Shown piece by piece: positions 54,487-61,141 of a DNA stretch of 64,000 nt; position 1 is the first letter of the stretch; every line of letters starts with the position of its first letter. Origin of the DNA: Lachnospiraceae bacterium. GTDB taxonomy: Bacteria > Bacillota > Clostridia > Lachnospirales > Lachnospiraceae. Made by a program: the position numbers and the translations under genes. The notes beneath the pieces are model-generated. The model ran no database searches. It was not told the DNA's origin and saw only the letters and a list, made by a program, of their open reading frames with translations. The stretch spans positions 39,834 to 103,833 of the forward strand of contig JAEERY010000072.1 of NCBI GenBank assembly GCA_016286035.1, given 5' to 3'.

Positions 54487-54516
54487 TTGACATATGCCGA
54501 CTAAGTCATGTAATAT
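54487..54516 (+). promoter_or_regulatory. Promoter of degV
   Basis: A perfect TTGACA (54487-54492), an 18-base spacer and TAATAT (54511-54516). An overlapping TATAAT at 54514-54519 would give a 21-base spacer. Confidence 0.6.
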
Positions 54517-54549: not shown

Positions 54550-55404
54550 ATGGAAAAGATAAGAATAATAACAGATTCGGCATCGGATATACCAAATAAT
54601 GACAAGGTACCGGCCAATCTTACCATATTACCGCTGACAATACGATTCGGAGAAGAGGAATTCCAGGACGGAGTGACTATCACGAACAAGGAGTTTTACG
54701 ATAAACTCACCGGCGGAGATATACTTCCGAAGACAAGTCAGGTAACTCCTTTTGCTTTTGAGGAGGAGATACAGAAAGCTCTGGATAACGGAGAGAAGGT
54801 TATCATCATAACGTTATCGAGCGGTTTGTCAGGGACATATCAGAGTGCTTGTATCGCAGCATCAAATTTTGATAAAGACGTTACCGTTATTGACAGTTTC
54901 ATGGCTACGGTATCAGAGCAGATCCTTGTGGATTATGCATTGAAACTTGTTGACAGCGGCATGGAATATGATAAGATAGTTGAGACGCTCGAGGCTGACA
55001 AGAAGAAGATAAAGCTTGTTGGACCGCTTGATACTTTGGAGTATTTAAAGAAAGGCGGAAGAATATCTGCAGCAGCAGCAGTATTCGGAAGTGCTCTTTC
55101 TATCAAACCCGTTATCACACTTGTTGACGGTAAGGTTGAGGTAGCTACAAAAGCCAGAGGAAGAAAGAATGCGGTTGAGTCTACTCTTAAGATCTTAAGA
55201 GAGAGTGAGACCGGAGTGGATCTTGAGAAGCCCGTTGCCATAGGTTATTCGGGAAATGAAAAAGATATGTTAAATATCTTTGTGGAGAGCAGTAAAACAA
55301 ACGGAAACATCAGTCTTGAAAACTGGAAGGTCGTAAGTATTGGATCTACGATCGGCACATACACAGGTCCGGATTCTATAATACTCGGATACTTTGAAAA
55401 ATAA
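54550..55404 (+). CDS. DegV family fatty-acid-binding protein
   Basis: A 284-residue member of the DegV (EDD fold) family. It has ITDSASDIP, TSQVTP and LSSGLSGTYQSA, which line the fatty-acid pocket in known structures. Homologues (FakB) present fatty acids to the kinase FakA. No fakA is in the window. GGAG precedes the ATG. The aromatic leader ORF begins 18 bases after its stop, so the aromatic operon is either transcribed with it or starts inside its 3' end. Confidence 0.93.
   Translation: MEKIRIITDSASDIPNNDKVPANLTILPLTIRFGEEEFQDGVTITNKEFYDKLTGGDILPKTSQVTPFAFEEEIQKALDNGEKVIIITLSSGLSGTYQSACIAASNFDKDVTVIDSFMATVSEQILVDYALKLVDSGMEYDKIVETLEADKKKIKLVGPLDTLEYLKKGGRISAAAAVFGSALSIKPVITLVDGKVEVATKARGRKNAVESTLKILRESETGVDLEKPVAIGYSGNEKDMLNIFVESSKTNGNISLENWKVVSIGSTIGTYTGPDSIILGYFEK
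55377..55382 (+). promoter_or_regulatory. Possible -10 box for the aromatic leader transcript
   Basis: A perfect TATAAT lies inside the degV 3' end. A start near 55389 would put the leader ATG 34 bases downstream. The matching -35 region (GGCACA at 55354-55359) is poor, so this is only suggestive. Confidence 0.35.
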
Positions 55405-55422
55405 TCCTAGGTGATAAAGATC

Positions 55423-55539
55423 ATGAACAGACTCATAAAAAAAGTCACAAGTTCATATTTTTACTTTAGCCAGGCTTGCTTTTGGGCAAGCTTTTTTGGG
55501 TTTTACTTTTATTATGACAGAATAAACCAGGCCGGCTAA
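55423..55539 (+). CDS. Aromatic-rich leader peptide (38 residues)
   Basis: ATG at 55423 has AGGTGA eight bases upstream. The peptide starts MNRLIKKVTSS, and residues 12-31 read YFYFSQACFWASFFGFYFYY: seven Phe, five Tyr and one Trp. It ends DRINQAG and TAA at 55537. The run of codons for exactly the three end products of the downstream pheA-aroC-aroQ-aroA-tyrA-aroF operon makes a sensing leader far more likely than a functional small protein. A hydrophobic membrane microprotein is the alternative. It is in a different frame from pheA. Confidence 0.75.
   Translation: MNRLIKKVTSSYFYFSQACFWASFFGFYFYYDRINQAG
55472..55497 (+). terminator. Terminator-like hairpin inside the leader ORF
   Basis: AGGCTTGC (55472-55479) and GCAAGCTT (55486-55493) pair over 8 bp (one G-T), with a six-base loop, and the T-run extends to 55497. 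It would form only if no ribosome translates the leader, so it may stop transcription when translation initiation fails. Confidence 0.5.
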
Positions 55540-55561
55540 AGTGTAGGGGATCAGATTGAAT

Positions 55562-55598
55562 GGGCTCTATCCTATGCCGGATAGGGCCCTTAATTTTT
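55562..55598 (+). terminator. Attenuator terminator before pheA
   Basis: GGGCTCTATCC (55562-55572) pairs with GGATAGGGCCC (55579-55589), 11 bp with one G-U and a six-base loop, followed by TTAATTTTT. It lies between the leader ORF and pheA and is the segment 3:4 stem of the proposed attenuator. Confidence 0.8.
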
Positions 55599-55618
55599 AT
55601 AAGGCAGTGAGGAGTTTT

Positions 55619-56455
55619 ATGAAGATAGTTTATAGCGGGATTGAGGGGTCATTTGCATCTATTGCTGCGGAAAAGATATTTCCCGGTGAACAGATGGTTA
55701 CATGCAAGAGCTTTTCGGAAGCATATGAAAAAGTAAAAGACGGTTCTTGTGATGCAGCTGTTCTCCCGATAGAGAACAGTTATGCGGGAGAAGTCGGTCA
55801 GGTCACGGACCTTATGTATGAAGGTGATCTTATAGTGAGCGGCGTTTATCCTTTAAGGGTATCTCAGAATCTTCTCGGAATACCGGGAAGTGAGATATCA
55901 GACATAAAAAAAGTAATAAGTCATCCGCAGGCTCTTGAACAGTGCATGGATTACATAGATGAGCACGGGATATTGATAGAACAGTCAACAAATACCGCAA
56001 GAGCAGCATTGGAGGTTTCCAATCTGTCAGATAAGAGCGTCGGTGCGATAGCAAGTAAGAAGACCGCGAGTCTTTATGGACTTAACGTATTGCAGTCAGA
56101 CATCAATAAAGATAAGATGAACACTACCAGATTTGCGGTGTTTTCTAAAGATGAGATCGATCAGTGCAATAAGAATCTGCATGATGCATGTATAATGATA
56201 TTTACCGTTAGACATGAGGCCGGAGCACTAGCAAAAGCCATAGGTATCATAGGAGATCACAGATTCAACATGAGAGTGATAAGAAGCCGCAGGATAAAAG
56301 GAGTTCAATGGCAGTACTATTTCTATATCGAACTGGAAGGCAGAATGCGTTCAGTAGAAGGAAGTGGTATTATAGATGAGATGAAAAGATACTGTGAATC
56401 TGTAAGACTGGTCGGTTCATACTATGCACAGGAACCGGTTATTGAGGAGGATTGA
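55619..56455 (+). CDS. pheA: Prephenate dehydratase
   Basis: Converts prephenate to phenylpyruvate, the Phe branch. It has 278 residues: a dehydratase domain (YSGIEGSFASIAAEKIF, LPIENSYAGEVGQV, ISHPQALEQC, and catalytic NTTRFAVFS) and a C-terminal ACT regulatory domain from about residue 195. No chorismate mutase domain is attached, so the mutase must be elsewhere. GTGAGGAG precedes the ATG at 55619. The in-frame TTG at 55556 lies in front of the attenuator stem and was rejected. First structural gene of the operon. Confidence 0.95.
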   Translation: MKIVYSGIEGSFASIAAEKIFPGEQMVTCKSFSEAYEKVKDGSCDAAVLPIENSYAGEVGQVTDLMYEGDLIVSGVYPLRVSQNLLGIPGSEISDIKKVISHPQALEQCMDYIDEHGILIEQSTNTARAALEVSNLSDKSVGAIASKKTASLYGLNVLQSDINKDKMNTTRFAVFSKDEIDQCNKNLHDACIMIFTVRHEAGALAKAIGIIGDHRFNMRVIRSRRIKGVQWQYYFYIELEGRMRSVEGSGIIDEMKRYCESVRLVGSYYAQEPVIEED

Positions 56456-56463
56456 GACGATCT

Positions 56464-57558
56464 ATGAAGAATACATTTGGTCAGTCACTGACAGTCACAT
56501 TGTTCGGAGAAAGTCACGGACCATATATCGGGGCGGTATTGGATGGACTTGCTCCCGGTCTTGATATAGATGATGAATTTATAAAACATCAGCTGGATCT
56601 TAGAAGGCCTGCAGGTAAGATATCAACAAAGAGAGTGGAGCAGGATGAGTATATAATAGCCAGCGGTGCATTTAACGGAAAGACTACGGGTACGCCTTTA
56701 AGCATACTTATCCCCAACAGTGTTCAAAAGAGTGCTGATTATGAGAATGCTCCCAGAATAGCGCGTCCCGGACATGCCGATTATACTGCGAATGAGAAAT
56801 ATCATGGTTTTGAGGATTTCAGAGGAGGCGGACATTTCAGCGGCAGGATCACTGCTGCAGTTGTGGCTGCAGGAGCGGTGGTAATACCCGCACTGAACAA
56901 AAAAGGAATCATGATCGGTACTCACATAAAAAGCTGTGGCGGAATATCCGACAGGGATTTTGAAGATTATTCCAAAGATATAGAATGCCTTTCCAAAACG
57001 AATTTTCCGGTACTTGATGAAAAGAAAGCTGCTGATATAAGAGAGATGATGGAAGAGACAGCAGCTAAAGGAGACAGTGTAGGCGGAGTGCTTGAGACTG
57101 TTATAACCGGAATGCCCACGGGAGTCGGGGAACCATGGTTTGATACGGTTGAAGGCATACTGTCACATGCATTGTACAGTATTCCCGCGATCAAAGGAGT
57201 TCAGTTTGGTGACGCATTTGACATGGTTGATAGAAAAGGCAGTGAATACAACGATGCATTCCGCATGGAAGGTGATAAAGTCATAACACTGACCAATCAT
57301 AACGGAGGGATCAACGGAGGCATAACAAACGGAATGCCGATCCTGATAAGATGTGCGGTTAAACCCACTCCTTCCATATACAAGAAACAGGAATCGATAG
57401 AACTGAATTCAAGAAAAGACGCCGATCTTCAGATCGTTGGAAGGCATGATCCTGCCATAATACACAGAGCACGCATCGTGGTTGACAGCATGAGTGCACT
57501 TGCGTTATATGATATGCTGGCAGTTCGCTATGGAACGGACTGGTTTTTGAAAGGATAA
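56464..57558 (+). CDS. aroC: Chorismate synthase
   Basis: Makes chorismate from EPSP using reduced FMN. It has 364 residues. The signatures are GESHGPYIGAVLDG, RRPAGKISTKRVEQDE, RPGHADYTANEKYHGFEDFRGGGHFSGR and GGINGGITNGMPI. The ATG at 56464 is 13 bases after GAGGAGG; an in-frame TTG at 56452 is too close to it. The pheA stop lies between them. Confidence 0.96.
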   Translation: MKNTFGQSLTVTLFGESHGPYIGAVLDGLAPGLDIDDEFIKHQLDLRRPAGKISTKRVEQDEYIIASGAFNGKTTGTPLSILIPNSVQKSADYENAPRIARPGHADYTANEKYHGFEDFRGGGHFSGRITAAVVAAGAVVIPALNKKGIMIGTHIKSCGGISDRDFEDYSKDIECLSKTNFPVLDEKKAADIREMMEETAAKGDSVGGVLETVITGMPTGVGEPWFDTVEGILSHALYSIPAIKGVQFGDAFDMVDRKGSEYNDAFRMEGDKVITLTNHNGGINGGITNGMPILIRCAVKPTPSIYKKQESIELNSRKDADLQIVGRHDPAIIHRARIVVDSMSALALYDMLAVRYGTDWFLKG

Positions 57559-57561
57559 GAA

Positions 57562-57996
57562 ATGAAGATAAGAGTTATCAACGGAGCAAATATAAATATG
57601 CTCGGTATCAGAGAACCGGAAATATACGGCAGCACAACATACAGTGATCTTGTTGAAATGATAAAGGCACATGCAAAAAAAACCGGTATAGAGATCGAAG
57701 TGATGCAGAGTAACCATGAAGGAGATCTCGTGGATATGATACAGGATTGCTACGGAAAGATAGACGGGATAGTCATAAATCCCGGTGCCTATACTCATAC
57801 AAGTATTGCTATACTTGATGCGGTGAAAGCCGTGTCGGTTCCGACTGTTGAGGTTCATATCTCTGATCCGGACACACGTGATGAATTCAGAAAGATAAGC
57901 TTCATCAGAGCTGCATGCGTAAAGACGATAAAGGGACACGGACTTAACGGATATCTTGAAGCAATCGATTTTCTAAAGTCCCAGGCAGATGCCTGA
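57562..57996 (+). CDS. aroQ: 3-dehydroquinate dehydratase, type II
   Basis: Dehydrates 3-dehydroquinate to 3-dehydroshikimate. It has 144 residues, the type II dodecameric form. The signatures are NGANINMLGIREPEIYG with the catalytic Tyr, SNHEGDLVD and INPGAYTHTSIAI. It lies three bases after aroC and overlaps the longest reading of aroA by eight bases. Confidence 0.96.
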   Translation: MKIRVINGANINMLGIREPEIYGSTTYSDLVEMIKAHAKKTGIEIEVMQSNHEGDLVDMIQDCYGKIDGIVINPGAYTHTSIAILDAVKAVSVPTVEVHISDPDTRDEFRKISFIRAACVKTIKGHGLNGYLEAIDFLKSQADA

Positions 57997-58015
57997 CAGA
58001 AAGAGAGATATTAAG

Positions 58016-59224
58016 ATGATCGTTACCATCAAACCATCAAAAGCATCAGGTAAGATACAGGCACCTCCGTCTAAGAGCATGGCTCACAGGATGCTTATCT
58101 GTGCCGCCCTGGCAAAAGGGATAAGCAGGATCGAAAATGTGGCATATTCCGAGGATATACTGGCAACTTTGGATTGTATAGAAGCAATGGGAGCCCAGGT
58201 TAAAAAAGAAGATGACACAGTTACCGTAACCGGTATAGGAGATCAGAAGATATCTTCACCTGTGGAGTTTAAGTGTCGCGAGAGCGGCAGTACGCTGAGA
58301 TTTTTTATCGGTATTGCAATGGCTGTTTCTAATGAATCCTCATTTTACGGAAGCGAAAAACTACTTTCCAGACCGTTATCGGTGTATGAGGATATATGTG
58401 ACAGGCAGGGGATAGAATTCTTAACCGGAGATCATATACATATAAAAGGGATGTTGAAACCCGGAGACTTTGAGGTTGCCGGCAATATCAGTAGCCAGTT
58501 TATAAGCGGCCTCTTATTTGCACTGCCGCTTCTTGAAAAGGACAGTCATATAATATTTACAACAGCGATAGAAAGTGCATCATATATACAGCTTACACTT
58601 GAAGCTCTGTCTTTATTCGGTGTTAAGGCCTCATGGCTTGATGAGAAGACTCTGTTTGTAGAGGGAGGACAGACTTACAAAAGCAGAGAAGTCATAGTTG
58701 AAGGTGACTATTCAAATGCGGCGTTCCTTGATGTTTTCAATACGATCGGAGGAAATGTTGCTGTAAACGGACTTAAAGAAGACAGCGGTCAGGGAGATAA
58801 GGTCTATAAAAAGTTCTATGAAAGACTTGTTGCAGGTCACTGCAAGATAGATATATCTGATTGTCCGGATCTTGGTCCCGTACTCATGGTTGTTGCGGCT
58901 GCCAATCACGGAGCAACATTTACGGGAACGGCAAGACTTAAGATAAAGGAAAGTGACAGGGGACACGTCATGTGTGACCTTTTGTCTGACTTTGGAACAG
59001 ATACCGTATACGAGGACGATAAAATAGAGGTAAAAGAGGGTGTTCTAAAAAAACCCGATAAAGCAGTCGACGGTCATAACGATCACAGGATAGTTATGGC
59101 AGCAGCATCTCTTTTATCGATCACAGGCGGATGCTTAAGCGGTTATGAAGCCGTAAGAAAGAGTTTTCCCGATTATTTTGATGTTATAAAACAGCTTGGT
59201 ATAGATATTGAATACAATGCTTAA
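58016..59224 (+). CDS. aroA: 3-phosphoshikimate 1-carboxyvinyltransferase (EPSP synthase)
   Basis: Adds enolpyruvate from PEP to shikimate-3-phosphate. It has 402 residues from the ATG at 58016 (preceded by AGAGAG) and the IQAPPSKSMAHRMLICAALA, RESGSTLRFFIGIAM and DHRIVMAAASL motifs. An earlier ATG (57989) would overlap aroQ and add nine residues. The residue pattern near SGSTLRF has Ser after the Arg-Glu pair, and the glyphosate class is not decided here. Confidence 0.96.
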   Translation: MIVTIKPSKASGKIQAPPSKSMAHRMLICAALAKGISRIENVAYSEDILATLDCIEAMGAQVKKEDDTVTVTGIGDQKISSPVEFKCRESGSTLRFFIGIAMAVSNESSFYGSEKLLSRPLSVYEDICDRQGIEFLTGDHIHIKGMLKPGDFEVAGNISSQFISGLLFALPLLEKDSHIIFTTAIESASYIQLTLEALSLFGVKASWLDEKTLFVEGGQTYKSREVIVEGDYSNAAFLDVFNTIGGNVAVNGLKEDSGQGDKVYKKFYERLVAGHCKIDISDCPDLGPVLMVVAAANHGATFTGTARLKIKESDRGHVMCDLLSDFGTDTVYEDDKIEVKEGVLKKPDKAVDGHNDHRIVMAAASLLSITGGCLSGYEAVRKSFPDYFDVIKQLGIDIEYNA

Positions 59225-59235
59225 GGAGAAGATCT

Positions 59236-60090
59236 ATGGAATGGATCAATAAGAAAAACATACTTATTGTCGGACTCGGACTCATGGGCGGAAGTTATGC
59301 AATGGCTCTTAAGAGACTGGGATACAGGGTATTTGCTATAGATATAGACGGCGAATCCATAAAGTATGCAATTGATAATAATCTTATAGATGACGGGAGT
59401 ATAAAAGCCGATCCTAATCTTATAAGTAATGCGGATGCCGTGATATTTGCACTGTATCCGAAGACATTCACAACGTGGATAGAAGAGAACCAGAAGTTTC
59501 TTAAGCCGGGAATATTCATTACGGATGTGACCGGCGTTAAAGAATGCATAGTATATAAAATCCAGGATATCTTAAGAAAAGATGTTGAATTCATAGCATC
59601 GCATCCGATGGCGGGAAGAGAAGTATCGGGTGTGCAAAACAGCAGCGATATGATATTCAGGGATGCCAATTACATTGTGGTCCCCACAGACAAAAACACT
59701 CCTGAAGCCATAGAATGGTGCATGATGTTAGGAAGGATACTTGGATTCAGAAAAATATCGGTGCTTTCACCTGCTGAGCATGATAAGATGATCGCATATG
59801 TATCGCAGCTTACTCACTGCATAGCGATATCACTCATGACGGGAACCGATCTGGAACATGTGGAGAACTTCACGGGAGATTCTTTTCGTGATCTTACCAG
59901 GATCGCCAGGATAAACGAAAATATGTGGAGTGAGCTGTTTTTGATGAACAAGGACACATTGATAGACCAGATGGACCGGTTTATTGACGAGCTCACACAG
60001 ATAAAAAAACTCATAGCAGATGAGGATACCGAAGGGTTAAAGGAAAAGATGCGTCTTTCAACAAAGAGAAGGATGCGATTTGACAGATAG
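59236..60090 (+). CDS. tyrA: Prephenate dehydrogenase
   Basis: Oxidative decarboxylation of prephenate to 4-hydroxyphenylpyruvate, the Tyr branch. It has 284 residues. The NAD(P) motif is VGLGLMGGSYAMAL, and the catalytic His lies in IASHPMAGREVSG. No ACT domain is attached. The stop overlaps the longest reading of the next gene. AAGGAGAAG precedes the ATG. Confidence 0.94.
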   Translation: MEWINKKNILIVGLGLMGGSYAMALKRLGYRVFAIDIDGESIKYAIDNNLIDDGSIKADPNLISNADAVIFALYPKTFTTWIEENQKFLKPGIFITDVTGVKECIVYKIQDILRKDVEFIASHPMAGREVSGVQNSSDMIFRDANYIVVPTDKNTPEAIEWCMMLGRILGFRKISVLSPAEHDKMIAYVSQLTHCIAISLMTGTDLEHVENFTGDSFRDLTRIARINENMWSELFLMNKDTLIDQMDRFIDELTQIKKLIADEDTEGLKEKMRLSTKRRMRFDR

Positions 60091-60112
60091 ATTATGTTTG
60101 AGGAGAATCATT

Positions 60113-61141
60113 ATGAATATGGAATTTGAAAAAAAGCTGGCATTACCCATAGAAGTCAAGGAGTCATATGCACTTTCATGGGAAATGGAGCAGAATATAG
60201 GTGCAAAAAGAAGACAGATCGAGGATATATTTGAGGGAAAGAGCGATAAGATTTTGCTCATTATAGGCCCCTGTTCTGCAGACAATGAGGAAAGTGTAAT
60301 TGACTATATTTCAAGACTCTGCCCCCTTCAGGAAAAGGTGCAGGATAAGATTCTAATAGTCCCTAGAATATATACCAACAAGCCGAGAACAAACGGCGGC
60401 GGATACAAGGGAATGCTTCATCAGCCCGATCCAACCGGAAAATCCGATCTGTTCAAGGGGCTTATCGCAACCAGACATATGCATATGAGGGCTGTCAGCG
60501 AGACAGGATTTGCCTGTGCGGATGAGATGCTCTATCCCGAAAACTATCAGTATCTTGATGATCTTTTAGCATATGTCGCAGTCGGAGCCAGATCTGTTGA
60601 AGATCAGCAGCACAGACTTACAGCAAGCGGTATAGATGTTCCTGTGGGTATGAAGAATCCTACCAGCGGAGATTATTCCGTAATGATGAATGCGATATTC
60701 GCAGCACAATCAGGACATACATTCATATACAGAGGATGGGAGGTTCATTCAAAGGGAAATCCGCATACACATGCCATTTTAAGAGGTTATACCAATAAGC
60801 ACGGTCAGTCACAGCCCAATTATCATTATGAGGATCTGGAGAGATTGTGTGATACATATGAAGGAATGGATCTTGTTAATCCCGCTGTTATCATTGATAC
60901 AAACCATGCAAATTCAAACAAGAATCCTTTTGAACAGCCCAGGATAATAAATGAGGTATTAAACTCTGCAAGACATGACAAGAGGGTAAAGGCCATTGTA
61001 AAGGGATTTATGGTAGAGAGTTATATTGAGGACGGATGTCAGAAGGTTGGCGGAGGAGTATACGGCCAGTCGATCACAGATCCATGTCTGGGATGGGAAA
61101 AGACTGAAAAGCTTATCCTTGATATCGCTGACTATATATAA
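60113..61141 (+). CDS. aroF: 3-deoxy-7-phosphoheptulonate synthase (DAHP synthase), AroF/G/H class
   Basis: First step of the shikimate pathway: PEP plus erythrose-4-phosphate to DAHP. It has 342 residues from the ATG at 60113, which has GAGGAG upstream. The class I signatures are IGPCSADNEESVIDY, PRTNGGGYKGMLHQPDPTGK and RGGSGDYSVMMNA-like PTSGDYSVMMNAI, and HANSNKNPFEQP. The symbol is chosen for family only; the feedback amino acid is not decided. It is the last gene of the operon. The pathway genes aroB, aroE and aroK are not in the window. Confidence 0.94.
   Translation: MNMEFEKKLALPIEVKESYALSWEMEQNIGAKRRQIEDIFEGKSDKILLIIGPCSADNEESVIDYISRLCPLQEKVQDKILIVPRIYTNKPRTNGGGYKGMLHQPDPTGKSDLFKGLIATRHMHMRAVSETGFACADEMLYPENYQYLDDLLAYVAVGARSVEDQQHRLTASGIDVPVGMKNPTSGDYSVMMNAIFAAQSGHTFIYRGWEVHSKGNPHTHAILRGYTNKHGQSQPNYHYEDLERLCDTYEGMDLVNPAVIIDTNHANSNKNPFEQPRIINEVLNSARHDKRVKAIVKGFMVESYIEDGCQKVGGGVYGQSITDPCLGWEKTEKLILDIADYI

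What the first reader, a model, noticed from the sequence alone, without database searches (positions are those of the whole stretch)
55405..55618. A 38-codon Phe/Tyr/Trp-rich leader peptide and alternative hairpins control the shikimate/Phe/Tyr operon
Seen: an ORF at 55423-55539 with a well-spaced AGGTGA site encodes 13 aromatic residues among residues 12-31, then an 11-bp terminator (55562-55598) directly before pheA. Segments 55464-55475 and 55531-55541 pair; segment 2 can also pair with 55570-55580 and so break the terminator. The stop codon lies in segment 2, the classical attenuator geometry. Known: E. coli pheL and trpL work this way, while Firmicutes more often use T-box or TRAP control. 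Inference: one peptide senses all three aromatic amino acids for six genes, which would be an unusual multi-amino-acid attenuator in a clostridium.
Basis: partly seen in the sequence, partly recalled or inferred. Interest (0 to 1): 0.88.

Follow-up and report, generated by a model that had tools for sequence, protein, structure and literature searches.

The report
Phe/Tyr leader-peptide switch in Lachnospiraceae
In front of a six-gene cluster for making phenylalanine and tyrosine in a Lachnospiraceae bacterium lies a 38-codon reading frame packed with Phe and Tyr codons, followed by RNA stretches predicted to form alternative hairpins, and this arrangement, kept in relatives, likely lets a slowed ribosome switch the genes on when these amino acids run short.

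Summary
ORF 55423-55539 (13 F/Y/W in residues 12-31), the 1:2 and 2:3 pairings and the terminator before pheA are as described. Four relatives (three of the same genus, one of another) keep the peptide core, the terminator and the alternative stems. With a model ribosome blocking the RNA, the antiterminator forms when it sits on the first aromatic run and not when it sits on the stop codon, in all five. A trpL/pheL-type attenuator is by far the best reading. It is not a single oddity: 23 of 41 close pheA loci (14 of 26 genomes outside the genus) carry an aromatic leader, in several dissimilar sequences; the automatic scan alone finds 18 of 41, and 0 of 96 distant loci. The 'senses all three' claim is weak: Trp occurs in 6 of 23 leaders, and trp genes of this genome follow a T-box-like element with TGG at the specifier place. 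Unexpected is a second terminator-like hairpin inside the leader ORF (55472-55493) whose T run is Phe codons; such hairpins recur in leaders of dissimilar sequence and may hold RNA polymerase until the ribosome arrives. Expression, pausing and starvation response are untested.

The parts
54487..54516 (+). sigma-70-like promoter (TTGACA-18-TAATAT) before degV; the best candidate that would reach the leader
   Evidence: consensus scan only, 10 of 12; other + strand matches in that scan lie inside degV (54599, 54950) or inside the leader (55514)
54550..55404 (+). degV-family gene; its stop is 18 nt before the leader ATG
   Evidence: TIGR00762/PF02645; same neighbour by eye in RGIG8044 and RUG12896
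55409..55414 (+). AGGTGA, Shine-Dalgarno-like site of the leader ORF
   Evidence: sequence
55423..55539 (+). leader peptide ORF, 38 codons, 13 Phe/Tyr/Trp
55456..55467 (+). first aromatic run, codons Y12 F13 Y14 F15: the predicted sensing codons
   Evidence: invariant in the four leaders of A1; ribosome model
55463..55475 (+). segment 1 (ACTTTAGCC + GGC)
   Evidence: pairs with 55531-55542
55472..55497 (+). in-ORF hairpin T1 (stem 55472-55493) with T run 55492-55497 made of Phe codons F24 F25
55531..55548 (+). segment 2, holding the leader stop codon 55537-55539
55565..55580 (+). segment 3 / antiterminator partner of segment 2
55562..55599 (+). terminator T2 (3:4), 11-bp stem 55562-55589 and T-rich tail
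55619..56455 (+). pheA, prephenate dehydratase (Pfam PDT 175 bits; weak ACT; below the NCBIfam equivalog cut-offs)
56452..57558 (+). aroC, chorismate synthase
57562..57996 (+). aroQ, type II 3-dehydroquinate dehydratase
57989..59224 (+). aroA, EPSP synthase (TIGR01356, 265 bits, below its 287 cut-off)
59236..60090 (+). tyrA, prephenate dehydrogenase (Pfam PDH_N and PDH_C over cut-off; NCBIfam equivalogs below theirs)
60110..61141 (+). aroF/G/H-type DAHP synthase

Best explanation
The stretch 55405-55618 holds a Phe/Tyr-rich leader ORF, RNA segments predicted to form competing folds and a terminator-like hairpin just before pheA, and most likely works as a ribosome-mediated transcription attenuator that opens the six genes when Phe-tRNA or Tyr-tRNA is short. 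Inferred steps: RNA polymerase would slow at the hairpin T1 inside the ORF while a ribosome starts on the leader. A ribosome slowed at Y12-F15 (or F20-W21) would cover segment 1, so segment 2 pairs with segment 3, terminator T2 cannot form and transcription goes on. A ribosome that reaches the stop codon would cover segment 2, so T2 forms and transcription stops. With no ribosome, 1:2 (in the window) and perhaps T1 would keep the genes off. Shown: the sequence, the complementarity, its conservation. Computed: the effect of ribosome position on the folds. Not shown: translation, co-transcription of the six genes, pausing, read-through.
For: Peptide core YFYF..ACF.A..FGFYFY invariant in four leaders and closely matched in a fifth from another genus (G301). 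T2: 98.2% of cells paired in five sequences, 3 of 11 pairs with changes on both sides; T1: 7 + 2 pairs, 100% and 90% paired; 1 of 500 letter shuffles reaches the pairing, and 1 of 500 the covariation score, of T1 and T2 together. Fixed-position duplex tests, four of the five leaders combined (nearest relative left out): 1:2 Fisher p 2e-5, 2:3 p 4e-4. Ribosome blocking with named pairs: P(2:3) 0.86-0.99 at the codons of the first aromatic run and 0.00-0.02 at the stop codon in 5 of 5 orthologues, and the same with a 3-nt longer footprint. Aromatic leader + terminator in 18 of 41 close pheA loci by script, 0 of 96 distant, 0 of 1370 shuffles; the 11 other residue groups tried reach at most 8 of 41, that one (FIL) containing Phe. 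All six genes are matched to shikimate/Phe/Tyr enzymes.
Against: No expression data. At equilibrium the full-length RNA folds mostly as terminator (P 0.82-1.00) whatever the ribosome does, so read-through must be kinetic. The window's own 2:3 duplex is not stronger than shuffles. On the MAFFT alignment, 1:2 and 2:3 beat slid partners (75% and 77% paired against at most 50% and 55%) but not letter shuffles (75 and 180 of 500). In RUG12896 and RUG12483 the ribosome-free RNA prefers 2:3 (0.98, 0.85), so 1:2 does little there; in G301 neither named stem forms without a ribosome (0.02, 0.02). In the window a stall at F24-F29, and in G301 at F26-Y34, does not favour 2:3. A cruder measure, any upstream pairing of segment 3, did not separate the states clearly in most of 22 leaders.
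Confidence: 0.88

Rival explanations
1. The same attenuator, but it senses Trp as well: a true three-amino-acid sensor.
For: W21 is in the window, RGIG8044 and RUG12483; a model ribosome there gives P(2:3) 0.95 in the window. The cluster holds chorismate-pathway genes, chorismate being the Trp precursor.
Against: W absent in RUG12896 and G301 and in 17 of 23 leaders (one search list). Trp genes of the genome follow a T-box-like element. A ribosome short of Phe or Tyr stops before reaching W21.
Confidence: 0.2
2. A nascent-peptide arrest system (TnaC-like, recalled): the peptide itself stalls the ribosome in response to a free aromatic compound.
For: Non-aromatic residues A18, C19, A22, G26 are invariant in four leaders.
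Against: A18, C19 and A22 are encoded by the arms of T1, which can explain them as RNA constraint; G26 is not. Leaders at the same place in other genera share aromatic codons but largely not peptide sequence.
Confidence: 0.05
3. A small aromatic (membrane-type) protein of its own, followed by an ordinary terminator that separates degV from pheA.
For: Conserved at protein level; no Pfam match and no Rfam match above cut-off.
Against: Length and sequence vary between genera while position before pheA, aromatic codons and terminator stay; the ribosome-position behaviour recurs in 5 of 5.
Confidence: 0.04
4. Chance: a T-rich intergenic stretch read as Phe/Tyr codons.
For: Phe and Tyr codons are T-rich.
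Against: 0 of 1370 dinucleotide shuffles and 0 of 137 reverse strands pass the scan that 18 of 41 close loci pass; the peptide is conserved.
Confidence: 0.01

Closest known systems
E. coli pheL-pheA / trpL attenuators (anatomy recalled; trp timing and the list of attenuated E. coli operons from passages of PMC1183508)
   Same: Short ORF with cognate codons, 1:2 / 2:3 / 3:4 alternatives, stop codon in segment 2, terminator before the first biosynthetic gene.
   Different: 38 codons with Phe and Tyr mixed, six genes including DAHP synthase and tyrA, an extra hairpin with both arms and T run inside the ORF, and a place 18 nt behind degV without a clear promoter of its own.
uORFC-13-1 motif, Acholeplasma aroF (PMC8632094, section 26 read whole, other passages seen)
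   Same: uORF with Phe codon(s) before a terminator, aromatic pathway gene.
   Different: Described as coding for at least one Phe residue, aroF rather than pheA, found only in Acholeplasma and environmental sequences. No Rfam family matches the window or 12 leader loci above its cut-off.
Predicted His leader-peptide attenuators of Firmicutes (PMC9413887, abstract and passages seen)
   Same: Leader peptide with cognate codons, attenuator, antiterminator and terminator hairpins in Gram-positives including Peptostreptococcaceae.
   Different: Histidine, other families: six B. [quoted passage not shown]
tlrB (yxjB) leader of B. subtilis with NusG-dependent pausing (PMC6851288, passages seen)
   Same: A pause hairpin gives the ribosome time to start on a leader peptide whose stalling decides termination.
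   Different: Stalling by tylosin, pause between leader ORF and gene; here T1 lies inside the ORF and pausing is only predicted.
T-box riboswitch (RF00230)
   Same: The common Firmicutes answer to amino-acid shortage (recalled); three matches below Rfam's cut-off in this genome, before genes read by eye as thrS, trpC-trpF and ileS.
   Different: No T-box match in the window, nor in 12 leader loci, 18 leaderless close loci and 20 of the 96 distant loci.

Membership tests
Ribosome-mediated transcription attenuator (trpL/pheL/hisL type) | Short ORF with a ribosome site and codons of the operon's product | tested here: met
Ribosome-mediated transcription attenuator (trpL/pheL/hisL type) | Intrinsic terminator between leader and first gene | tested here: met
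   (sequence and conservation; termination not measured)
Ribosome-mediated transcription attenuator (trpL/pheL/hisL type) | Antiterminator (2:3) alternative to the terminator | tested here: met
   over relatives: Fisher p 4e-4, 77% against at most 55% slid but not beyond letter shuffles; window alone not significant
Ribosome-mediated transcription attenuator (trpL/pheL/hisL type) | 1:2 stem that stops 2:3 when no ribosome is present | tested here: inconclusive
   met in the window and RGIG8044 (P(1:2) 0.52 and 0.51 against P(2:3) 0.22 and 0.34); not in RUG12896 or RUG12483 (P(2:3) 0.98, 0.85); in G301 neither (0.02, 0.02)
Ribosome-mediated transcription attenuator (trpL/pheL/hisL type) | Ribosome at cognate codons frees 2:3, ribosome at stop blocks it | tested here: met
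   computed, for the first aromatic run, 5 of 5 orthologues; not for every later aromatic codon
Ribosome-mediated transcription attenuator (trpL/pheL/hisL type) | Read-through rises on starvation of the cognate amino acid and needs leader translation | not testable with these tools
   needs a reporter or RNA-seq
T-box riboswitch | Match to RF00230 | tested here: not met
Hairpin-dependent, NusG-dependent pause (for T1) | Hairpin 11-12 nt before the RNA 3' end, TTNTTT in the bubble, NusG with N81/T82 | tested here: inconclusive
   TTTTTT at 55492-55497 directly at the stem's end; the genome's NusG has R-N-T at the aligned place (B. subtilis chain recognised by recall, index counted by hand); rules from PMC12288461 passages; the script found TTNTTT after the stem in 6 of 15 hairpins; pausing unmeasured

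The most novel reading that the evidence does not exclude
The hairpin inside the leader ORF, whose U-tract is the Phe codons themselves, is a translation-gated trap for RNA polymerase: it pauses or ends transcription unless a ribosome enters the first aromatic run and melts it. This would solve the problem of ribosome sensing in bacteria where RNA polymerase outruns the ribosome, and it would have been built from unrelated codons at least twice (AGGCTTGC..GCAAGC and GCAGTACG..CGTACTGC leaders) in pheA leaders of Lachnospiraceae.
Probability: 0.35. Interest if true: 0.75.

Novelty: new variant of a known kind. Interest (0 to 1): 0.52.

Why it matters
From general knowledge (recalled): amino-acid attenuation by leader peptides is textbook for enteric bacteria and thought rare in Firmicutes, where T-boxes and TRAP prevail and where RNA polymerase is reported to run ahead of ribosomes in B. 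subtilis. Here 23 of 41 close pheA loci in one branch of Lachnospiraceae carry such leaders, in several dissimilar versions, while trp genes of the window's genome follow a T-box-like element. If T1 proves to be a pause or terminator released by the ribosome, it gives a direct, testable answer to how a ribosome can still steer polymerase in such bacteria. It would also predict when these Lachnospiraceae make their own Phe and Tyr.

Tried and rejected
Rejected: T-box or other Rfam riboswitch at this place (none above cut-off; only weak matches judged chance). Rejected as conserved function: Trp sensing (one search list; T-box-like element at trp genes).

Led nowhere or weak: a protein-database search with the leader found one protein, identical to the RUG12483 peptide. 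The genome-contig scan found three relatives, the same three contigs by length as those of G008, G016 and G015. The leader profile over 396 family genomes gave one convincing new hit (G301) and ten further genomes with E 0.0015-0.008, not followed up; around G301, 1 of 60 (itself). A general measure of segment 3 pairing did not separate ribosome states, so I used named pairs, chosen with the segments already in mind. L048 was left out of the antiterminator tests because my typed arms were not found in it. The TTNTTT test depended on where the fold ended the stem. The distance from an aromatic codon to T1's first arm is -1 to 4 nt in 14 of 15 hairpins, but I made no null for it and aromatic codons are dense. 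In the window, RGIG8044 and G301 the script's best in-ORF fold adds outer pairs beyond T1. Candidate ORFs in L010 and L015 were judged unconvincing by eye and count as without leader. L158 was dropped from the survey (contig begins inside the gene). Two distant loci, L077 and L138, are cut short by contig ends. The distant set is the best-scoring part of the list (plus L051), not all 190 matching genomes. Literature: ten searches listed no report of an aromatic leader-peptide attenuator in Lachnospiraceae; most listed papers were seen as listings only, and the library is open-access only.

Full report
What is there. The window lies in a 3.0-Mb genome whose nearest relatives by this leader are MAGs titled Lachnospiraceae, one from water-buffalo rumen. 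Six genes on the + strand, pheA (55619-56455), aroC, aroQ, aroA, tyrA and an aroF/G/H-type DAHP synthase (to 61141), overlap or nearly touch and match shikimate/Phe/Tyr enzymes; co-transcription is assumed, not shown. Between degV (stop 55402-55404) and pheA sits a 38-codon ORF with 13 Phe/Tyr/Trp codons, then an 11-bp terminator.

Relatives of the leader. A search of 20 genomes of the genus found the peptide in G008 (95% identical), G016 (78%) and G015 (64%) with E below 1e-6; three further matches had E 0.17-0.39. A profile search over 396 family genomes added G301, another genus (E 3e-11). Sixteen positions are invariant in the first four, among them YFYF and FGFYFY. W21 is Q in RUG12896, and G301 has no W. 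In all five the next gene is pheA; in RUG12483 it begins, by eye, with a chorismate mutase-like part, in the other four it does not.

Stems. On the five-sequence alignment A3, T2 keeps 98.2% of pairs with three pairs changed on both sides, and T1, a hairpin inside the ORF, keeps 100% (7 pairs) and 90% (2 pairs). The 1:2 and 2:3 stems keep 75% and 77%, against at most 50% and 55% for slid partners, though not beyond letter shuffles; the alignment is uncertain there because segment 2 has diverged. Tested without alignment, at a fixed place around the stop codon, 2:3 gives p 0.36, 0.043, 0.053, 0.002 and 0.019 and 1:2 gives 0.002, 0.002, 0.001, 0.146 and 0.062 for window, RGIG8044, RUG12896, RUG12483 and G301; combined without RGIG8044, 4e-4 and 2e-5. 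The RUG12483 antiterminator (17 pairs) shares little sequence with the window's (13 pairs) but its printed duplex starts at the same place, 6 nt before the stop.

Ribosome position. I folded transcripts that end just after segment 3 with a ribosome footprint (16 nt upstream to 12 nt downstream of the A-site codon's first base) held unpaired. In the window P(2:3) at aromatic codons is 0.94-0.95 for Y12-W21, 0.09-0.20 for F24-F29, 0.91-0.94 at Y30-Y31 and 0.00 at the stop; without a ribosome P(1:2) is 0.52 and P(2:3) 0.22 on the full pair lists (0.82 and 0.23 on shorter lists). In all five leaders the first aromatic run gives 0.86-0.99 and the stop 0.00-0.02. Without a ribosome the five differ: 2:3 is favoured in RUG12896 and RUG12483, 1:2 in the window and RGIG8044, neither in G301. 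Since a ribosome short of Tyr or Phe meets Y12 or F13 first, the first run is the likely sensor. At equilibrium the complete terminator always wins, so the choice must be made while the RNA is being made, as in known attenuators.

How common. Using the window's pheA, I collected 41 close loci (15 of the genus, 26 genomes elsewhere in the family) and 96 distant pheA loci (two of them cut short by contig ends). An automatic scan (SD-like site, ORF of 10-60 codons with at least 6 F/Y/W in 12, terminator after it) found 12 of 28 and 6 of 13 close loci and 0 of 96 distant ones; reverse strands 0 of 137, shuffles 0 of 1370; eleven other groups of residues reached at most 8 of 41. Five more were added by eye (L017, L022, L038, L039, L048), 23 of 41 in all: 9 of 15 in the genus, 14 of 26 outside. 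By eye they fall into a long class (window), a short class (such as SYFYFYFNNAMD), a class with VRFF, and singletons. Phe is in 23 of 23, Tyr in 22, Trp in 6 (peptides listed). The absence in distant loci is for this scan only, and leaders before some other first gene of an operon would be missed.

Trp. The same genome has three T-box matches below Rfam's cut-off, before genes that I read by eye as thrS, trpC-trpF and ileS; trpE lies about 4.6 kb after the second on the same strand and contig, the genes between not examined. That element has TGG at the expected specifier place, by eye. So the Trp branch likely has its own sensor.

The hairpin inside the ORF. T1 is AGGCTTGC-loop-GCAAGCTT, running into TTTTTT, the codons of F24 and F25. 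A hairpin + T run as strong as the observed occurs in none of 60 codon shuffles for 6 of 6 long-class leaders (L048's T run is poor); in the VRFF class, whose hairpin (GCAGTACG..CGTACTGC) has a different sequence, the fraction is 0.00-0.02 in 5 of 6 and 0.07 in the sixth; L021 0.02, L012 0.10, L020 0.08; the five short-class leaders and L017, L018, L022 lack it. In the window a ribosome at F15 or later, up to about F29, melts T1, one at Y12 or F13 does not. Two readings fit: a pause that waits for the ribosome, as described for trpL (PMC1183508) and tlrB (PMC6851288), or a terminator for transcripts without a ribosome. The latter would matter in RUG12896 and RUG12483, where ribosome-free RNA favours the antiterminator. 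Against a strict terminator: under hard Tyr starvation, a ribosome stuck at Y12 would leave T1 standing. NusG of this genome has the R-N-T that in B. subtilis recognises TTNTTT (rule from PMC12288461). I therefore favour a pause; this is inference.

Position behind degV. The leader ATG comes 18 nt after degV's stop in the window, 16 nt in RGIG8044 and 5 nt in RUG12896, where the upstream gene is degV-like by eye; in RUG12483 and G301 other sequence lies upstream. The best promoter-like site is before degV, so the attenuator may lie within a longer transcript. G301, by eye, has TTGACA-18-TAAAAT just before its leader.

Verdict. A real, conserved Phe/Tyr leader-peptide attenuator by sequence; a new variant of a known kind, with an unusual in-ORF hairpin and an unexpectedly wide spread before pheA in this branch of Lachnospiraceae.

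Noticed in passing
55619-56455: pheA here is a lone prephenate dehydratase (open frame 302 aa), while many close relatives have frames of 363-422 aa that begin, by eye, with a chorismate mutase-like part; where this genome's chorismate mutase lies was not looked for.
   Followed up: no
55402-55423: The leader sits 18 nt behind degV with no clear promoter between, so the attenuator may be internal to a degV transcript or depend on ribosomes leaving degV.
   Followed up: partly
L016, L153, L154, L156, L159, L161: Leaders of a second class sharing VRFF have a terminator-like hairpin inside the ORF (GCAGTACG..CGTACTGC type + T run).
   Followed up: partly
L041, L042, L043, L045, L013: Short-class leaders: segment 1 (ACTTTAATA) could pair with TATTAAGT after the stop and GCGATGGA inside the ORF with the terminator arm TCCACCGC, by eye in some of them; the script's duplex test was weak for the first three (fractions 0.18-0.43) and 0.05 and 0.015 for the last two.
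   Followed up: partly
L017 and L018: Antiterminators CGGACCG/CGGTCCG and CGAGCCG/CGGCTCG differ by changes on both strands between two genera.
   Followed up: no
L040, around 898-1400: In G006 of the same genus a gene that looks like trpG by eye lies upstream of pheA instead of a leader.
   Followed up: no
L068, L069, L070: T-box matches below Rfam's cut-off before genes read by eye as thrS, trpC-trpF and ileS in the window's genome.
   Followed up: partly
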